From Bacteroidaceae bacterium (GTDB taxonomy: Bacteria; Bacteroidota; Bacteroidia; Bacteroidales; Bacteroidaceae): DNA of 32,255 bases. Under the pieces are notes generated by a model, which was not told the origin of the DNA, ran no database searches, and saw only the letters and a list, made by a program, of their open reading frames with translations. Shown here piece after piece: positions 2,596-20,582 of this stretch. The translations under genes were made by a program, and so were the position numbers. The stretch covers positions 1-32,255 of the forward strand of contig JAFNXL010000006.1 of NCBI GenBank assembly GCA_017379075.1, read 5' to 3'. The stretch's first letter is position 1, and every line of letters starts with the position of its first letter.

Positions 2596-2619
2596 GAGAA
2601 GAAATACTAGGTTCTCAGA

Positions 2620-2710
2620 GCAGATATACTGCATGGGCCGATGCAGATATACTGCAACGGCTGTAGAAGATATCTTAAACGGGCAATGCAGTACTACTGC
2701 TATGGGAATT
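2620..2710. repeat. Tandem array, about 23-bp period, dyad-containing units
   Basis: Four units start at 2620, 2643, 2666 and 2688. Units 1 and 2 open with GCAGATATACTGCA. Unit 3 contains AAGATATCTT and unit 4 contains GCAGTACTACTGC. Each unit begins with a short inverted repeat (GCAG/CTGC, AAGAT/ATCTT, GCAGT/ACTGC), so the arms differ but stay complementary. The rest of each unit is loosely conserved, with GGGC or CGGC near the end. A fifth, decayed unit may start at 2711. The role is unknown. It sits downstream of a terminator, between convergent genes. Confidence 0.6.
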
Positions 2711-2882: not shown

Positions 2883-2936
2883 AGATTCTGCGGTCATCCG
2901 TCGCATCGGCGTCATCTGCGTGCCATTAAAAAACGA

Positions 2937-3024
2937 AAGGCGCTTTCTTCACAAAGTTAAGGCGATTCATTGCGGAATGAAAGGCGATTCATCGGCAAAG
3001 TAAAGGCGACTCTTTAAAAATAGC
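2937..3024. repeat. Tandem array with exact 22-bp period, AAGGCG core
   Basis: AAGGCG occurs at 2937, 2959, 2981 and 3003, spaced exactly 22 bp each time. Units 2 and 3 share AAGGCGATTCAT; units 1 and 4 keep the core only. Inverted repeats lie between cores, for example TTCATT/AATGAA across units 2 and 3, and CTTT/AAAG in unit 1. From 3025 to 3179 nothing further is recognised before the queG stop codon. Confidence 0.75.
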
Positions 3025-9497: not shown

Positions 9498-10765
9498 TAA
9501 AGGTCTTTTCCTATGTCGCTACGGAAATATTTCTTTTCAAACTGAATCTTCTGGGCTTCCTGGAAACTCTTTGCCAAAGCCTCTTCCTTGGTTTCGCCGT
9601 AACTGCTCACCGCAATCACACGGCCGCCGCTGGTTACCACCTGGCCATCCTTCATGGCTGTGCCGGCATGGAAAACCACGCTTCCTTCCACCTGGTCTAT
9701 GCCAGTTATGGGGAAGCCCTTGTCGTAGGCACCAGGATAACCGCCGCTTACGAGCATTACGCATACGGCACTACGGGGATCGAACTCAACCTTACATGCG
9801 CCCAGATTCTGCTGTGCAACAGCCTGGAAGAGGTCTACGATATCCGTTTTCAGACGCAACATCACAGATTCTGTCTCGGGGTCTCCCATGCGTACATTAT
9901 ATTCAATGACCTTGGGTTCGCCATCGACGTTGATCAGACCAAAGAAGATGAATCCCTTGTAATCGATTCCTTCCTGAGCCAATCCCTCAACAGTAGGACG
10001 GATAATGCGGTCTTCCACCTTCTTCATCCAAGCCTCATCAGCAAAAGGAACAGGGCTGACACTTCCCATACCACCGGTATTGAGGCCTGTGTCGCCTTCA
10101 CCAATGCGCTTATAATCCTTCGCCTCGGGCAGAATGGCATAATCTTTTCCGTCGGTAAGAACAAATACTGAACATTCTATGCCCGACATAAACTCTTCTA
10201 TCACCACTCGGCTACTGGCGTTGCCGAACATTCCGCCCAACATCTCTTCCAGTTCTTTCTCCGCTTCTTCCAAAGTGGGCAGAATGAGAACACCCTTTCC
10301 AGCGCAAAGTCCGTCAGCCTTAAGCACATAAGGAGCCTTTAGCGTACGCAGGAATTCTTTTCCTTGCTGAAGCGTATCGCCATTAAAGGTCTGGTATGCA
10401 GCAGTGGGAATACCATGACGCAGCATGAAAGCCTTGGCAAAATCCTTACTTCCTTCCAACACCGCTCCCTGCTTGCTGGGGCCGATGACGGGAATGTTCT
10501 TCAACTCGGCATCGTTCTGGAAATAATCGTAAATTCCCTTTACCAACGGATCTTCGGGGCCAACCACAACCATATCTATTTGGTTGCAGAGCACAAATTT
10601 CTTGATTTCATCAAAATCGTCTGCCTTGATGGATACGTTCTCCCCCACTTCGGCCGTTCCGGCATTTCCGGGAGCAATATATAATTTCTTTACTTTGGTG
10701 CTTTGGGCAATCTTCCAAGCCAAGGCGTGCTCACGGCCGCCACTTCCTAATAAAAGAATCTTCAT
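9497..10765 (-). CDS. purD: Phosphoribosylamine-glycine ligase
   Basis: The second committed step of de novo purine synthesis: ATP-dependent ligation of glycine to phosphoribosylamine, in the cytosol. The 422-residue length is typical of a monofunctional PurD. The N-terminus [20 protein letters not shown] is diagnostic. Other family blocks include [26 protein letters not shown], the ATP-grasp segment [16 protein letters not shown], and [11 protein letters not shown] near the metal site. It lies 28 bp after the DPP IV gene and shares a TAATG overlap with the downstream membrane protein. No purine riboswitch or PurR-like site is visible in the short gap, so it probably depends on the upstream promoter. 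Confidence 0.98.
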
Positions 10766-16699: not shown

Positions 16700-16860
16700 A
16701 ATTGTAATAAAAACAAAACAAATATTAAAGATAGTTAAAAGCGAAGGAGTGCGTTAAACCAATCTTTTGTAATCATGTCAATTCAGTACAAGGGCAACAA
16801 AAAGCCCAACAAAAAAGAGAAAATGAAAATAGAAAAATAACAATTAAAAAGAAAGACATT

Positions 16861-17298
16861 ATGAAGAAGACTTTGATTACCCTGTTTGTAGCTTTAGTAA
16901 GTTTCACAACAGCTCTCGCCGACAATGACCGTGCCATACAGTTCAACCAACTCCCCCAAGCGGCACAGACCTTCCTGAACAGCCATTTCAAGAACGCAAA
17001 GATTGCAATGGTAACCACAGAACGCGACTGGCTGAGCCAAGAGTACAACGTGGTATTTGTAAACGGAGACAAGATTGAGTTTGACAGCAAAGGCAACTGG
17101 GAGAACATCGAGTGCAAGCGCACCTTCATCCCCCAAGGAGCAGTGCCCGCAGCCATAACCAAGTACCTCAACGAGAACTTCCCCGGCACAAAAGTTACCG
17201 AAATTGATCTGGACAACCGCGGATACGACGTAGACCTGTCCAACGGAATGGAAATCAAATTCGACAAGAACTTCCTGGTTTACAAGATCAAGAAATAA
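16861..17298 (+). CDS. Secreted PepSY-like domain protein
   Basis: A 145-residue periplasmic protein with a clear signal peptide (MKKTLITLFVALVSFTTALA, cleaved before Asp). The mature part contains two similar halves of the PepSY-like/BLIP-like fold found widely in Bacteroidetes: LPQAAQTFLNSHFKNAKI followed by YNVVFVNGDKIEFDSKGNW, and VPAAITKYLNENFPGTKV followed by YDVDLSNGMEIKFDKNF. These proteins are small and usually stress- or envelope-associated, and no enzyme activity is established. There is no catalytic residue pattern. It is monocistronic: a hairpin lies upstream at 16666 and a terminator 27 bp after its stop. Confidence 0.88.
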   Translation: MKKTLITLFVALVSFTTALADNDRAIQFNQLPQAAQTFLNSHFKNAKIAMVTTERDWLSQEYNVVFVNGDKIEFDSKGNWENIECKRTFIPQGAVPAAITKYLNENFPGTKVTEIDLDNRGYDVDLSNGMEIKFDKNFLVYKIKK

Positions 17299-17325
17299 GT
17301 TTTAGAACAAGACCTCATAGCGATA

Positions 17326-17365
17326 CTTAGGATGCGCCCGTGATGGGTGCATCCTAAGTTTTTTT
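17326..17365 (+). terminator. Intrinsic terminator after the PepSY-like gene
   Basis: CTTAGGATGC (17326-17335) pairs with GCATCCTAAG (17349-17358), extended inward by partly paired GCCC/GGGT. A run of seven T (17359-17365) follows directly. It is a textbook Rho-independent terminator. Confidence 0.9.
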
Positions 17366-17390
17366 ATTTCACTCCGCATACTCCCCTACG

Positions 17391-17453
17391 TTTGCCAAAA
17401 AACAAGAAAAAGGAGCTTTTACGGAATACGTTGAGTTCTTACAAATACACAAA
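17391..17453. repeat. Conserved block in front of a 22-bp array, copy 1
   Basis: A stretch containing CAAAAAACAAGAAAAAGGAG, then ACGGAAT and ATACACAAA, is repeated at 17914-17970 with small differences and an 8-nt gap. Each copy begins about 100 bp before the first unit of a 22-bp tandem array (17489 and 18015). This gives a recurring block-plus-array layout. No open frame is supported. Confidence 0.7.
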
Positions 17454-17488
17454 AAAACTTTACAAAGAAACAATTTGAAGTAAAACCA

Positions 17489-17598
17489 GTTGGAAAGCCG
17501 GAAACGGCCAGTTGGGAAAATTTTATTTCCCTGTTGGAAAAATATTTTTTCTCAGTTGGAAAATTATTTTTTTCCAGTTGGGCACTTTCAGAAGCCCT
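17489..17598. repeat. Tandem array with exact 22-bp period, GTTGG core
   Basis: GTTGG occurs at 17489, 17511, 17533, 17555 and 17577, exactly 22 bp apart, mostly preceded by CA. Each unit contains an inverted repeat with different arms: GCCG/CGGC, GGGAAA/TTTCCC, GAAAAAT/ATTTTTC, TGGAAA/TTTCCA and GGGC/GCCC. The fixed core with changing but complementary arms suggests selection or a copying process that preserves hairpins. It lies between convergent genes. Confidence 0.8.
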
Positions 17599-17700
17599 TT
17601 TTTACGCATTTTTGCTCGTTTTTGACTTCTTATGGTTATTATCAGTGAATACCAAAAATGTTTTACGTTTTCATTTTCGTTTCGACAAAAGAAAGATTTT

Positions 17701-17731
17701 GAGCGGTGAGCAGTGAGCAATGAGCAATGAG
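17701..17731. repeat. Short GAGCAATGAGC-type repeat, relative of the 2821-2882 array
   Basis: GAGCGGTGAGCAGTGAGCAA is followed by another TGAGCAATGAG. It is the reverse-complement counterpart of the TGCTCACCACTCAT repeats at 2821-2882. As in island 1 it directly adjoins a module B copy. Confidence 0.7.
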
Positions 17732-17734
17732 GGG

Positions 17735-17886
17735 GTAGGGACGTTGCGTGCAGCGTCCGAAGATTTTTCCCTCACGCAAATCTCGCCAATCCCGCAAATA
17801 CTTCTTTTATTTCGTGAGATTCGTGAGATTTGCTTGTGACATAACTCCAACAAAACCCTTCGGACGCAGCACGCTGACGTCCCTAC
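17735..17886. repeat. Dispersed modules B(inverted)-A-A'-B in island 2
   Basis: An inverted module B (17735-17762, starting GTAGGGACG), module A (17771-17795), its loosely inverted partner CGTGAGATTCGTGAGATTTG (17813-17832) and a direct module B (17858-17886) form a large imperfect palindrome. The same modules occur once each at 2724-2819. These sequences are noncoding. Confidence 0.8.
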
Positions 17887-17913
17887 AAAATTAATCGCCT
17901 TACAAGGAATAAA

Positions 17914-17970
17914 TCTGTCAAAAAACAAGAAAAAGGAGTTTGCACGGAATGCAGCAAAATACACAAACAC
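17914..17970. repeat. Conserved block in front of a 22-bp array, copy 2
   Basis: Second copy of the 17391-17453 block, sharing the exact core CAAAAAACAAGAAAAAGGAG plus ACGGAAT and ATACACAAA. It starts 101 bp before the first ACTTAA unit of the following array. Confidence 0.7.
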
Positions 17971-18014
17971 ACATCTAACTAATATTCAGCACGATACAAT
18001 AACTCTAAAACCAC

Positions 18015-18124
18015 ACTTAAAACACACGAAAAAAAGACTTAAGTGTTTCTCGAGTTTTACTTAAGTCTTTCTTGAAAAACACTTAACTGTTTCAGGAGAA
18101 ACACTTAAGTGATACTTTTTGCCG
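18015..18124. repeat. Tandem array with exact 22-bp period, ACTTAAGT core
   Basis: ACTTAA occurs at 18015, 18037, 18059, 18081 and 18103, exactly 22 bp apart; four of the five continue as ACTTAAGT or ACTTAACT. Between cores lie dyads such as GTTTC/GAAAC and TTTC/GAAA, so 18081-18110 folds as a 13-bp stem with one mismatch and a 4-nt loop. On the minus strand the last dyad is followed by CTTTTTTTCG, so the array could also stop transcription from the PAP2 gene. From 18125 to 18195 nothing else is recognised. Confidence 0.85.
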
Positions 18125-18195
18125 TTTTTTATGTTAAAGTTTTTTACTCACATCCTGTCTCCCCACATATTCCTATGCAGATGTCATGAGTTTAA

Positions 18196-18963
18196 TCAGA
18201 AGACGGCAACTAAATTCAAGCCTGCACTCTCATTCGAAAAATATGGCATTCCAACAACAAAACCTTGGTTACAAACCGATTTCTTAAATAATTTAGGATA
18301 TAACCAATAGGCGAACTTTGTGCTTAATATTCCAACACATGCCCCGGCTACTACATCATTTATATAATGTCGGTTGTTATATATTCTCAAATAACCAGTT
18401 GTAGCCGCCACTGCGTAACCGGTGTATCCAATCCAAGGCGATATGTCCTTATATTCTTCATAAAGATATTGTGCGCCCATAAAAGCAGTCGCCGTATGTC
18501 CCGAAGGAAAGGAATTTGTTGCATTTGAATCTGGACGTTTCTCGTTAAAAGCCAACTTCATGGAACGTACGACTATACCCATTGTCGCATACGACATGGC
18601 AAGAATCAGTGTCCTTTCCTTTAACGAATGAGTGGCTTGTACACCAGTAAACCCCAAACCATAACCTACAACCATAGGTGAATACTGTATATAATCATCT
18701 ACCTTAATTTTTTTCTTTCCTTTGGCGGAAAGAGCATCTTGTACGTTCATTTTCTGCTTCTTAAACCAGCCGTTTTCTATACTCAATGCTGAAATGCCGA
18801 CCAATGAAGCAGGAATTACAATTTCTTTCCAGTTCAATCTGTGTGTGTTGAGCTGGACACATAGAGGAAGTGGCTTGTTTTGCAGAGTGTCCGTGACAGC
18901 ATCCTGTGCTTTTAAAGGCATAAGGAATCCGATCACAAGACAGATTATCCACACACGTTTCAT
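18196..18963 (-). CDS. PAP2-superfamily phosphatase, exported or membrane-anchored
   Basis: A 255-residue phosphatase of the type 2 phosphatidic-acid-phosphatase superfamily. The three motifs are complete: K136 to RP (KLAFNEKRP), SFPSGH (151-156) and R193-x5-H199-x3-D203. It begins with a signal peptide (MKRVWIICLVIGFLMPLKA) leaving Gln at the mature end. Members dephosphorylate undecaprenyl-pyrophosphate, lipid A or phosphatidylglycerol-phosphate; the actual substrate cannot be chosen here. The gene is AT-rich relative to the core genes nearby. Its leader carries copy 1 of the structured RNA, so regulation at the leader is possible. It stands alone downstream of the lipoprotein gene. Confidence 0.92.
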   Translation of the reverse strand: MKRVWIICLVIGFLMPLKAQDAVTDTLQNKPLPLCVQLNTHRLNWKEIVIPASLVGISALSIENGWFKKQKMNVQDALSAKGKKKIKVDDYIQYSPMVVGYGLGFTGVQATHSLKERTLILAMSYATMGIVVRSMKLAFNEKRPDSNATNSFPSGHTATAFMGAQYLYEEYKDISPWIGYTGYAVAATTGYLRIYNNRHYINDVVAGACVGILSTKFAYWLYPKLFKKSVCNQGFVVGMPYFSNESAGLNLVAVF

Positions 18964-19024
18964 TTGATTTCGTTTATTTTTATTGTCTTAACCTTCTCAA
19001 TATCATTGTACATTTCCCTATTCA

Positions 19025-19238
19025 GACAATAAAAAAAGCGCAGACTAAAACTTTTGTCTACGCTATCCGAAAATCACCAAATACCATGTTGCCGTATACA
19101 AGTATAAGCTCACACCAATGCGTGAGCATTAACTTTTACTCTTGACAGCTACTTCAATTTGGCGATTTCAGATAGCAAGAATAAAACTAACGCTTTTTTA
19201 TCTTAAAATGTCTTTCATTCGTTGTGTTACATAGGCAA
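19025..19238 (-). ncRNA. Structured leader RNA candidate, copy 1 (upstream of PAP2 gene)
   Basis: About 210 bp strongly similar to 20304-20514. Read on the minus strand, it forms nested helices: GCTATCTG with CGGATAGC, ATCGCCAAAT with ATTTGGTGAT, and GCTCACGC with GTGTGAGC. A terminator hairpin (19038-19063, GCGTAGAC/GTCTGCGC) with a T-tract follows. Most changes against copy 2 keep pairing through G-U on the minus strand. TTATTGTC after the T-tract is complementary to GACAATAA just before the PAP2 start. No convincing promoter is seen directly upstream of this copy. Confidence 0.55.
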
Positions 19239-19265
19239 GTATTTTATTGTAAGTAAATAGAAATC

Positions 19266-20240
19266 CTATTTTCTGCGATTCTTATGGCGTAATCCAAACA
19301 TGTATCCCCTATTTCTTGACTTTTCCGCACGAGTCACCTTGGCTTTGTACTTATCAACATCTCCCTGTTCTGCGATAGTTCCGTATTTAAAGAAAGTCTC
19401 ACCTGCTCTGTGTAAAGTACCATCCTCATTAAACTCGTATGTGAATTGCTCTGTATCAGAATCAGAATACTTTTCTCCTTCATATTCTTCTATATATGTT
19501 TCTGTAGCTCGTACAGGCAAGTAATCCGGTCCATTCCCGAATAGACCTAAATAGAAATAGAAACCATGCATGAAACTTGCGAATTGTTTATATTTGTTCC
19601 AATTCTCACCATTTTCATATTCATATGAAATTATTTCCTTTTCAGAGGAGCCATCATCATATTTTTCTATAGCTTCATATTTTTTCAGAAGTCCATTTGT
19701 CCAAGTTAAAGCCACTGTTCCTATTCCACTTTCTTTATATGACTCACCTTCTTCAACACCTTGTTCTGTAAAGGTGGAATTTACTTTGACTAAATGCCCT
19801 TCAGCATCATACGATAGAGTAGATGTATATGAGTCATTCCAACTTCCATATTCATCTGAACCAGTTTCGGTGAAGTGCATTTTAGAAATATATCCAAGTT
19901 TATTATACGAAACTGTATAAACTTCTTTGTCCTCAAAGTCTTCATCATATGCGTAATTGCAAATAATTTGGTTCGGAGAGTAGGTAAATTCATATTTCTC
20001 GTAATCACCACACACTACATATTTTATTTTTCCATCTGGTGTGTAAAAAAAATCATAATCATCGACAGAGAGCAGTTTCTTTCCGCTTCCTGGAATAACT
20101 TCTCCTACGCTGGCTGTTGGAGTTCCGTTTCCATTGCTGCCGCCATTGTCATTTTCATTGTCATCACTACACGCAATAAAAGTCATGCCACAAACTACGG
20201 CCATAAAATAAAGGCTCAAATATTTGGATATTGTTTTCAT
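19266..20240 (-). CDS. Surface lipoprotein of unknown function (DUF4595-like)
   Basis: 324 residues with a type II signal peptide ending FIAC; the mature protein starts CSDDNENDN, and the acidic residues after Cys fit the Bacteroidetes lipoprotein export signal, so surface display is likely. A low-complexity linker (NDNGGSNGNGTP) is followed by repeated beta-hairpin units of the type YDAEGHLVKV, YEFNEDGTLHRAG and YTPDGKIKYV, resembling DUF4595/RHS-like wrapped sheets. No catalytic residues are apparent. It ends with a basic tail (RAEKSRNRG...KNRRK). It is the most AT-rich gene of the window, suggesting a different history. It is transcribed from the promoter at 20532 through the leader RNA copy 2. 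Function is unknown. Confidence 0.85.
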   Translation of the reverse strand: MKTISKYLSLYFMAVVCGMTFIACSDDNENDNGGSNGNGTPTASVGEVIPGSGKKLLSVDDYDFFYTPDGKIKYVVCGDYEKYEFTYSPNQIICNYAYDEDFEDKEVYTVSYNKLGYISKMHFTETGSDEYGSWNDSYTSTLSYDAEGHLVKVNSTFTEQGVEEGESYKESGIGTVALTWTNGLLKKYEAIEKYDDGSSEKEIISYEYENGENWNKYKQFASFMHGFYFYLGLFGNGPDYLPVRATETYIEEYEGEKYSDSDTEQFTYEFNEDGTLHRAGETFFKYGTIAEQGDVDKYKAKVTRAEKSRNRGYMFGLRHKNRRK

Positions 20241-20303
20241 TTTGTTATAATTTTATTGTCTTAAATATTCTTTATCTCAATCTTATAGTCCATTCTGAAT
20301 TCT

Positions 20304-20514
20304 GACAATAAAAAACGTGGACTAAAACTTCGTCTACGCTATCTCGGTATCGCCAAACACCATGCTGCCATATACGAGTAAAAGCCCACGCCAAGGCGTG
20401 AGCATCAACTTTTACTCTTGACAGCTACTTCAATTTGGCGATTTCAGATAGCAAGAATAAAGCTAACGCTTTTTTATCTTAAAATGTCTTTTTTCCGTTG
20501 TGTTACATAGGCAA
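20304..20514 (-). ncRNA. Structured leader RNA candidate, copy 2 (upstream of lipoprotein gene)
   Basis: Minus-strand pairing, in plus coordinates: P1 20446-20452 with 20338-20344; P2 20434-20442 with 20349-20357; P3 20420-20425 with 20364-20369; P4 20409-20417 with 20376-20384; P5 20395-20403 with 20384-20392 (the last base is shared with P4). A terminator hairpin (20316-20338) and T-tract (20310-20315) follow, 70 bp before the lipoprotein ATG. A complete promoter stands just upstream. It is either a small RNA with its own terminator or a regulated leader. It resembles the promoter-to-terminator layout described for the Bacteroidales-1 RNA motif, but identity was not tested. Confidence 0.65.
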
Positions 20515-20531
20515 TTCTTTTTAATTGCTGG

Positions 20532-20562
20532 CAAAGTTAATGATTTTTTCTTTAAAAACAAA
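20532..20562 (-). promoter_or_regulatory. Bacteroidetes promoter for leader RNA copy 2 and lipoprotein
   Basis: On the minus strand TTTG (20559-20562) is separated by exactly 19 nt from TAACTTTG (20532-20539), matching both consensus elements. The predicted transcript start is near 20525, at the 5' edge of the structured RNA. It begins within 30 bp after the FAD oxidoreductase stop codon. Confidence 0.75.
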
Positions 20563-20582
20563 TTTTATAATCGACTTTTAGC

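What the first reader, a model, noticed from the sequence alone, without database searches (positions are those of the whole stretch)
17489..18124. Two different tandem arrays sharing an exact 22-bp period and hairpin-forming units
GTTGG recurs at 17489, 17511, 17533, 17555 and 17577; ACTTAA recurs at 18015, 18037, 18059, 18081 and 18103. Both periods are exactly 22 bp although the cores are unrelated. In the GTTGG array each unit carries an inverted repeat with different arms (GCCG/CGGC, GGGAAA/TTTCCC, GAAAAAT/ATTTTTC, TGGAAA/TTTCCA, GGGC/GCCC). Arms that change while staying complementary argue that pairing matters, or that a hairpin-copying replication process builds the units. 22 bp is about two helical turns, so a protein could bind the cores on one face of the DNA. 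I know no named repeat family with this plan. A simpler alternative is decayed terminator clusters.
Basis: seen in the sequence. Interest (0 to 1): 0.75.

Follow-up and report, generated by a model that had tools for sequence, protein, structure and literature searches.

The report
Intergenic palindrome arrays on 22-bp ruler
Between its genes this gut bacterium carries short arrays of mirror-image DNA units that repeat every 22 bases although the unit sequences differ from family to family; one such family is clearly conserved between relatives, which suggests an undescribed kind of gene-boundary element.

Summary
The window's arrays are single copies of two interspersed families in a Bacteroidaceae genome: A (CCAGYTGG cores, 20 held copies) and B (ACTTAAGT cores, 21 held copies). 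Both have near-constant length (mostly 236 and 231 bp), near-constant unit number and related end boxes, but unrelated arrays. Nine A-B pairs exist, all in one arrangement. Lag-22 arrays of many other unit sequences are over-represented elsewhere in this genome, G222 and G063, not clearly in G263 and G320. With ACTTAA gaps left free, 16 preselected genomes give 177 matches; the fixed 22/22 pattern gives 169. Units are palindromic at 11-bp half-spacing. Orthologous B arrays are 98/97% identical against 87/76% for the adjoining spacer, and more alike than paralogues, so purifying selection fits best. B's M1 box faces a gene 3' end in 17 of 19 scorable own copies; A shows no clear bias. Pooled mismatches show no G.U excess. 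Y1/RAYT was not detected in several array-rich genomes. I favour a DNA-level, two-turn protein platform at gene ends (inferred). Nearest known: BrickBuilt and REP/BIME.

The parts
17452..17667 (+). Family A element, window copy (216 bp between end boxes; other copies mostly 236)
   Evidence: alignment of 20 own-genome copies; M1-to-M2 lengths
17452..17464 (+). M1 end box of A (AAAAAACTTTACA), 153 bp from the stop of the PepSY-like gene
17486..17598 (+). Array A: five CCAGTTGG-type cores at exact 22-bp spacing, palindromic between cores; last unit is GGGC-loop-GCCC followed by T6
17654..17667 (+). M2 end box of A (AAAAATGTTTTACG)
17914..18144 (-). Family B element, window copy (231 bp); its M1 box is on the right, so read from M1 it runs on the minus strand
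   Evidence: alignment of 21 own copies; lengths
17914..17933 (-). M2-like end box of B (reverse complement of TTTTCTTGTTTTTTGACA type)
   Evidence: 97.3% (G236) and 94.0% (G125) identity over the orthologue comparisons
17934..18030 (-). B spacer, 97 bp: near-constant length, freely diverging sequence
18031..18119 (-). Array B: four 22-bp ACTTAA units forming two adjacent hairpins
18132..18144 (-). M1 end box of B (plus strand TGTTAAAGTTTTT; family consensus TGTAAAGATTTTT), 51 bp from the PAP2 ORF
17699..17886 (.). Sequence between A and B: TGAGCAA 7-mer repeats and an inverted pair (GTAGGGACGTTGCGTGCAGCGTCCGAAG and its partner), with many similar stretches elsewhere in the genome
16861..17298 (+). 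Flanking gene, PepSY_like (PF11396), convergent with the PAP2 gene
18196..18963 (-). Flanking gene, PAP2 superfamily (PF01569)

Best explanation
The two arrays are copies of two related families of interspersed intergenic elements of near-constant size. They belong to a wider class in Bacteroidaceae: short arrays (often 3-5 units, more in some genomes) of palindromic units at an exact 22-bp period, with unit sequences that differ between families and genera. Shown: copy number, near-constant architecture of A and B, the 22-bp ruler, palindromicity with 11-bp half-spacing, conservation of B's array and end boxes at orthologous loci, 3'-end bias of family B. Inferred: each unit is a dyad bound by a DNA-binding protein, units being two helical turns apart so that bound proteins sit on nearly one face and cooperate; the resulting platform works as a boundary between transcription units (stopping or insulating transcription, or anchoring the nucleoid) downstream of genes. 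Families arise and spread as whole elements by an unidentified route.
For: Ruler: ACTTAA triplets with each gap free from 8 to 24 bases, in 16 of the 25 other genomes that had a 22/22 hit, give 177 matches; the fixed 22/22 pattern gives 169 in the same genomes, though the letters between cores vary freely (G222). Core-free lag scans: 22 is the highest of lags 12-45 in the own genome, G222 and G063. Palindromic centres 1.93, 2.66 and 3.12 per array against controls 0.22, 0.39 and 0.26, mostly 11, 22 and 33 bp apart. Purifying selection: B array identity 958/979 (G236) and 431/445 (G125) against spacer 917/1054 and 369/485 in 16 orthologue comparisons, Fisher p below 1e-21 in both; paralogue arrays average only 0.873, arguing against gene conversion. 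DNA rather than RNA: on the sense strand of 31 tandem-gene arrays G.T mismatches are 19 and A.C 42. 3'-end bias: B's M1 side faces a gene 3' end in 17/19 own, 9/9 G125 and 12/15 G236 scorable copies, 9 of the 17 within 20 bp.
Against: No protein identified and no binding data. 22 bp is slightly longer than two B-DNA turns (21). Unit sequences differ between families, so one sequence-specific protein cannot explain the class; many specificities, or a structure-specific protein, would be needed. RNA folding is also strong (mean z -3.4 to -5.6), one compensatory double change (L034 vs L157) fits RNA hairpins or hairpin copying equally, and in B's first hairpin the sense strand has 6 G.T against 1 A.C (second hairpin 8 and 8; 37 arrays). 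A.C above G.T in the pooled set was not predicted either. Family A shows no consistent 3'-end bias (own 11 of 16, G236 5 of 9, G125 1 of 4). Some arrays lie in divergent regions (3 of 17 own, 2 of 6 placed in G063), though my gene caller is crude.
Confidence: 0.4

Rival explanations
1. RNA-level element: the arrays are read out as 3' UTR and fold into hairpins that terminate transcription in both directions or stabilise mRNA ends.
For: B often sits directly downstream of stop codons with fixed orientation; A-run before and T-run after array B; strong folding; one compensatory change between orthologues; G.T 6 vs A.C 1 in B's first hairpin on the sense strand; last unit of array A is GGGC/GCCC followed by T6.
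Against: No G.U excess on the sense strand of 31 pooled tandem-gene arrays (19 G.T vs 42 A.C); the simple terminator scan flags neither array; hairpin function does not require an exact 22-nt period.
Confidence: 0.27
2. Transposon ends: A and B are left and right ends of a non-autonomous element, the 22-bp units being transposase-binding sites (as recalled for Tn7/Mu ends), M1 being the terminal inverted repeat.
For: Nine A-B pairs in the own genome, all in one arrangement with M1 boxes outward, no A-A or B-B pair within 2.5 kb among held copies; 3 of 3 orientable pairs in G236 the same; near-constant element lengths.
Against: No exact target-site duplication in the 7 pairs where both outer M1 boxes were found (2 of 9 not scorable; one shared 5-base word at shifted ends in L016); 0 pairs in the G125 stretches; more than half of the held copies are unpaired; no clean insertion polymorphism of A or B in the comparisons made, although an unrelated MITE was caught; selection keeps B arrays at orthologous loci, unexpected for dead ends; A and B units are unrelated.
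Confidence: 0.18
3. Neutral product of replication: hairpin template switching and slippage keep units palindromic and homogeneous, with no function.
For: Linker orientation flips in family A and an inverted loop in one B copy; such events create paired changes without selection.
Against: B array conserved more than the spacer and more than adjacent, mostly coding, sequence; near-constant unit number in A and B; no reason for exactly 22 bp in unrelated sequences.
Confidence: 0.1

Closest known systems
BrickBuilt MITE of Porphyromonas gingivalis (PMC4596501; abstract, some passages and sections 5, 7 part 1, 8 and 9 read)
   Same: Bacteroidales; intergenic; 19 copies in ATCC 33277; tandem short repeats between a leader and a tail; predicted long stem-loops. 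The paper also cites 41-, 23- and 22-nt tandem repeats in strain W83.
   Different: 23-nt unit; unit number varies from 1 to 22.8 and changes between strains; 12-bp IS5-type terminal inverted repeats and some target duplications. Here: 22 bp, near-constant unit number in families A and B, no exact TSD found, many unrelated unit families per genome.
REP/BIME repeats mobilised by RAYT (Y1) transposases
   Same: Intergenic palindromic units, often in alternating orientation (abstract start of PMC2817692 seen in a listing).
   Different: No Y1_Tnp match in array-rich G222, G063, G281, G116, G132, some of them incomplete; period exactly 22; unit sequences unrelated between families.
Pneumococcal BOX elements (recalled; only the start of one abstract, PMC3049150, seen in a listing)
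   Same: Modular interspersed repeat forming a long hairpin, with a repeated central module (recalled).
   Different: BOX module is about 45 bp with variable copy number (recalled); here 22 bp and unrelated modules.
Tn7/Mu transposon ends (recalled)
   Same: Several about 22-bp transposase sites at a transposon end.
   Different: Not palindromic, same site at both ends, 5-bp target duplications (recalled); here palindromic, different arrays at the two ends, no exact TSD.

Membership tests
BrickBuilt-type MITE | 23-nt tandem unit | tested here: not met
   period 22
BrickBuilt-type MITE | leader and tail flanking the repeats | tested here: met
   end boxes and spacer; sequences were not compared with BrickBuilt's
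BrickBuilt-type MITE | terminal inverted repeats with target-site duplication | tested here: not met
   no inverted ends seen on single A or B elements (by eye); A-B pairs have outward M1 boxes but no exact TSD in 7 of 7 scorable pairs of 9
REP/BIME | RAYT/Y1 transposase in genomes with the repeats | tested here: not met
   PF01797 not detected in G222 (89% complete), G063 (99), G281 (63), G116 (90), G132 (84); 2 matches in the own genome; 10 of 18 genomes searched have one
REP/BIME | GTAG or CGTC tag at the foot of the palindrome | not tested
   a lead from the listing of PMC3733652; not searched
Intrinsic terminator | G+C-rich stem, short loop, then T-run | tested here: not met
   scan of 17280-18220 flags 17325-17359 and 17739-17758, not the arrays
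Tn7/Mu-type end | target-site duplication at element ends | tested here: not met
   7 of 9 pairs scorable, none exact
CRISPR array | identical repeats separated by unique spacers | tested here: not met
   contiguous palindromic units; similar arrays recur around the genome
Known Rfam RNA | match over gathering score | tested here: not met
   four sub-threshold microRNA models on 16700-19300

The most novel reading that the evidence does not exclude
A class of bacterial boundary element defined by geometry, not sequence: palindromic half-sites every 11 bp in exact 22-bp units, rebuilt many times from unrelated sequences within one family of bacteria, read by a structure- or phase-specific protein at gene ends.
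Probability: 0.3. Interest if true: 0.85.

Novelty: new variant of a known kind. Interest (0 to 1): 0.66.

Why it matters
A period that stays exactly 22 bp while the sequence turns over points to a physical constraint that sequence searches cannot see. If a protein or process sets that ruler, it would be an undescribed layer of gene-boundary or chromosome organisation in abundant gut bacteria, and it gives a simple computational handle (lag-22 scans of intergenic DNA). If it is an RNA or transposon feature, it still accounts for much intergenic DNA in these genomes that similarity-based annotation misses.

Tried and rejected
Rejected: Rfam families (sub-threshold only); REP/RAYT; phage or plasmid carriage (no match for B on plasmids, or for A+B on phages); CRISPR-like arrays; pure gene conversion (orthologues 0.97-0.98, paralogues 0.87).

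Led nowhere: target-site duplications; a cargo gene between A and B (one ORF, only a weak Mpv17/PMP22 match at E 0.016); end boxes shared by other array families (boxes near arrays per kb against other intergenic DNA: own 0.82 vs 0.27, G063 0.72 vs 0.12 from 3 matches, G222 0 vs 0.14); turnover of array families at orthologous gaps (too few gaps: 16 own-G236, 11 own-G125, 5 own-G222).

Results against my reading: at the order level 9 of 246 other genomes have the ACTTAA 22/22 pattern, several of them plain 11-bp microsatellites, and the backwards control hits 6 of 247 (my count). In the family sample the pattern hits 26 of 301 genomes and the backwards control 19 (my count); that control may itself catch 22-bp arrays of another sequence, but it is not an empty control. 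In one search it gives 49 matches against 177. The six order-level stretches (79 kb) have no cluster at any lag tested. G320 (1 in 200 kb) and G263 (3 in 100 kb; lag 24 has 4) show no clear lag-22 peak. G063 arrays show no convergent excess (0 of 6 placed). Family A shows no consistent 3'-end bias, and several of its box calls there rest on 3 mismatches.

Full report
CHECK. The unit stems exceed letter shuffles: array 1 sum 27 against 16.5, none of 2000 as high; array 2 P = 0.0035.

ELEMENTS. Searching the window's own assembly (3.0 Mb, 106 contigs) with 17400-18200 gives 133 matches. The array matches resolve into two families; many other matches are to the repeats between the arrays. Family B (the ACTTAA array): 21 own copies were aligned. 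Each has a left box TTTGTCAAAAAACAAGAAAA, a spacer of about 97 bp and diverging sequence, four 22-bp units and a right box TGTAAAGATTTTT; the total is 230-232 bp in 19 of 21, the others being 255 and a truncated copy. Family A (the GTTGG array): 20 own copies were aligned: M1 box AAAAWTCTTTACA, cores at 22 bp, spacer, M2 box GTAAAAATGTTTGACA. Of 18 copies measured, 16 have both boxes; 12 of these are exactly 236 bp, two are 235 and 237, and two are 216 (the window) and 214. By fuzzy matching most A copies show five or six cores in register. Read in reverse, B has the same M1 box and a similar far box (TTTTGACA), so A and B look like one element type with unrelated arrays. Among the held copies nine A-B pairs lie within 1.2 kb (centre to centre), all in the arrangement M1-A-M2 // M2-B-M1, with no A-A or B-B pair within 2.5 kb. 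Three of three orientable G236 pairs agree (a fourth could not be oriented), and the G125 stretches have none. One search lists further A-like places on contigs that I did not fetch (for example C1, C4, C31), so the census is of held sequence only.

CONTEXT. B's M1 side faces a gene's 3' end in 17 of 19 scorable own copies (22 examined, one of them a fragment: 2 at edges, 1 without box), in 9 of 9 in G125 and in 12 of 15 in G236 (16 examined, 1 at an edge); 9 of the 17 own distances are 20 bp or less. For A it is 11 of 16 (own), 5 of 9 (G236) and 1 of 4 (G125), which is not a bias. For the window copy of B the caller missed the PAP2 gene, whose ORF ends 51 bp away. All 17 lag-22 arrays of the own test set are intergenic (6 convergent, 8 tandem, 3 divergent; by base pairs 4.1, 10.0 and 2.9 expected). 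In G222, 9 of 27 placed arrays are convergent against 4.1 expected (2 more lie in a called gene or at an edge); in G125, 9 of 14 against 3.2 (10 more in a called gene or at an edge); in G063, 0 of 6 against 0.7 (2 more not placed) (simple codon-usage gene caller).

RULER. In 430 kb of the own genome (20 stretches from five large contigs, mostly away from the A/B loci fetched before, plus the window) ungapped lag scans give 17 clusters at lag 22, 5 at 21, 1 at 23 and 0 at 19, 20 and 25-27. Without the window: 14 at lag 22, against a mean of 0.43 over lags 15-40 except 21-23. G222 (same genus, 200 kb): 29; G063 (another genus, 200 kb): 8; G040: 5 in 100 kb; G263: 3 in 100 kb with no clear peak; G320: 1 in 200 kb. 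Copies of one family are not independent, so the Poisson values overstate. Unit sequences differ, for example TGTAAANNNNTTTACA and GATGCAATGCATTGCATC (own), CGCCGCACGCGG and ATAGATACATGTATGTATAATT (G222), and one array of G281 (L063) carries two unit types in succession (by eye). With ACTTAA gaps free from 8 to 24, in 16 of the 25 other genomes that had a 22/22 hit, there are 177 matches and 49 to the backwards control; the fixed 22/22 pattern gives 169 in the same genomes. Across the family sample 25 of 300 other genomes have the 22/22 pattern, the backwards control 19 of 301; across the order sample 9 of 246, the control 6 of 247. Downstream of two genes that carry B in this genome (rhaD-like P0002 and S41-peptidase-like P0003; these names are my reading of the proteins, no call named them), lag-22 arrays occur in 3 of 30 and 5 of 29 loci (the best 30 matches of each search; one P0003 locus had no downstream DNA), one own copy in each, the others with other unit sequences; no other lag exceeds 2.

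PALINDROMES. Centres with at least 7 of 9 pairs average 1.93 (own, 14 arrays), 2.66 (G222, 29) and 3.12 (G063, 8) per array, against 0.22, 0.39 and 0.26 after permuting the 22 columns, mostly 11, 22 and 33 bp apart. The arrays therefore read as alternating inverted arms every 11 bp. RNA folding favours long imperfect hairpins (mean z -3.4 own, -4.0 G222, -5.6 G063, -5.4 other genera). On the sense strand of 31 tandem-gene arrays, G.T mismatches number 19 and A.C 42, so RNA wobble is not favoured; but in 37 B arrays the first hairpin has 6 G.T against 1 A.C on the sense strand and the second 8 and 8.

SELECTION. In 16 comparisons of B at orthologous places (13 own loci; 11 with G236, 5 with G125; chosen because the element was present in both) array identity is 958/979 and 431/445, spacer 917/1054 and 369/485, adjacent 300 bp 2803/2969 and 1351/1497 (Fisher tests). 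In 15 of the 16 the array is better conserved than the spacer, with one tie. Caveats: one pair (L031-L162) is lowered by a MITE insertion in G236; one (L018-L153) has a poorly conserved right flank (240/300); one (L026-L147) was not among the spanning alignments and rests on its own flank (263/279). Paralogous own arrays average 0.873 (190 pairs of 20 arrays). One orthologous pair (L034-L157) shows a complementary double change. Syntenic gaps of the own genome and G236 agree in array presence in 16 of 16; of the own genome and G125 in 9 of 11. The gap between the PepSY-like and FAD-oxidoreductase genes is 3.3 kb here and 0.4 kb in G125, which lacks both arrays and the PAP2 gene there.

WHAT IT IS NOT. 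Y1_Tnp was not detected in G222, G063, G281, G116 or G132 (several of these genomes are incomplete). No Rfam family passes. No match on plasmids for B or on phages for A+B. No exact target duplication in the 7 scorable A-B pairs of 9. Seven paper searches found no description of this class; BrickBuilt (PMC4596501: abstract, passages, sections 5, 7 part 1, 8 and 9) is nearest. Of PMC5771137 only passages were seen; all other papers only as listings. The library lacks most subscription papers, and I did not see the W83 genome paper that BrickBuilt's authors cite for 22-nt repeats.

ORGANISM. Two relatives that carry family B correspond, by matching contig lengths, to MAGs titled Bacteroidaceae bacterium RGIG7333 (water buffalo caecum; G236) and RGIG9105 (water deer rectum; G125).

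JUDGEMENT. Shown: two multi-copy elements of near-constant architecture within a broader class kept at 22 bp, palindromic and mostly intergenic; family B is conserved and has a 3'-end bias. Inferred: a two-turn protein platform at gene ends. RNA termination and transposon-end readings remain open.

Noticed in passing
L162 (G236) around 9660-9850: A roughly 190-bp MITE with inverted ends (GGGCGGTTCTAAAAATT...) is inserted into a TTAA of array B in G236, empty in the own genome (L031); a similar element flanked by TTAA is in G125 L141.
   Followed up: partly
window 17391-17415: A second B-type end box (TTTGCCAAAAAACAAGAAAAAGGAG) lies just left of element A, with no B array attached.
   Followed up: no
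window 2616-2688 and 2926-3020: Further periodic arrays in the window: 23-bp (AGATATACTGCA...) and 22-bp (AAAGGCGATTCATTGC...).
   Followed up: partly
L094 16635-16741, L101 7906-8020, L104 357-482: A 21-bp array family (TGGAACGTACGTTTCATC type) in the same genome.
   Followed up: partly
window 17699-17762 and 17858-17886; many loci: Dispersed 7-mer repeats (TGAGCAA/ACTCATT) and an inverted GGGACGTTGCGTGCAGCGTCC repeat make intergenic regions mosaic; contents can differ between close relatives (L016 vs G236 L151).
   Followed up: partly
window 17299-20582: The PAP2 gene, an ORF without Pfam match (19266-20240) and both arrays are missing from the syntenic gap in G125.
   Followed up: partly
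G222 (L177-L186): Very high array density (29 lag-22 clusters in 200 kb), including ACTTAACACG arrays of up to nine in-register cores.
   Followed up: partly
family A copies, e.g. L134, L142, L145; family B copy L032: The linker between stems of A flips orientation between copies (CCAGTTGG vs CCAACTGG), and in L032 the loop of B's first hairpin is inverted.
   Followed up: no
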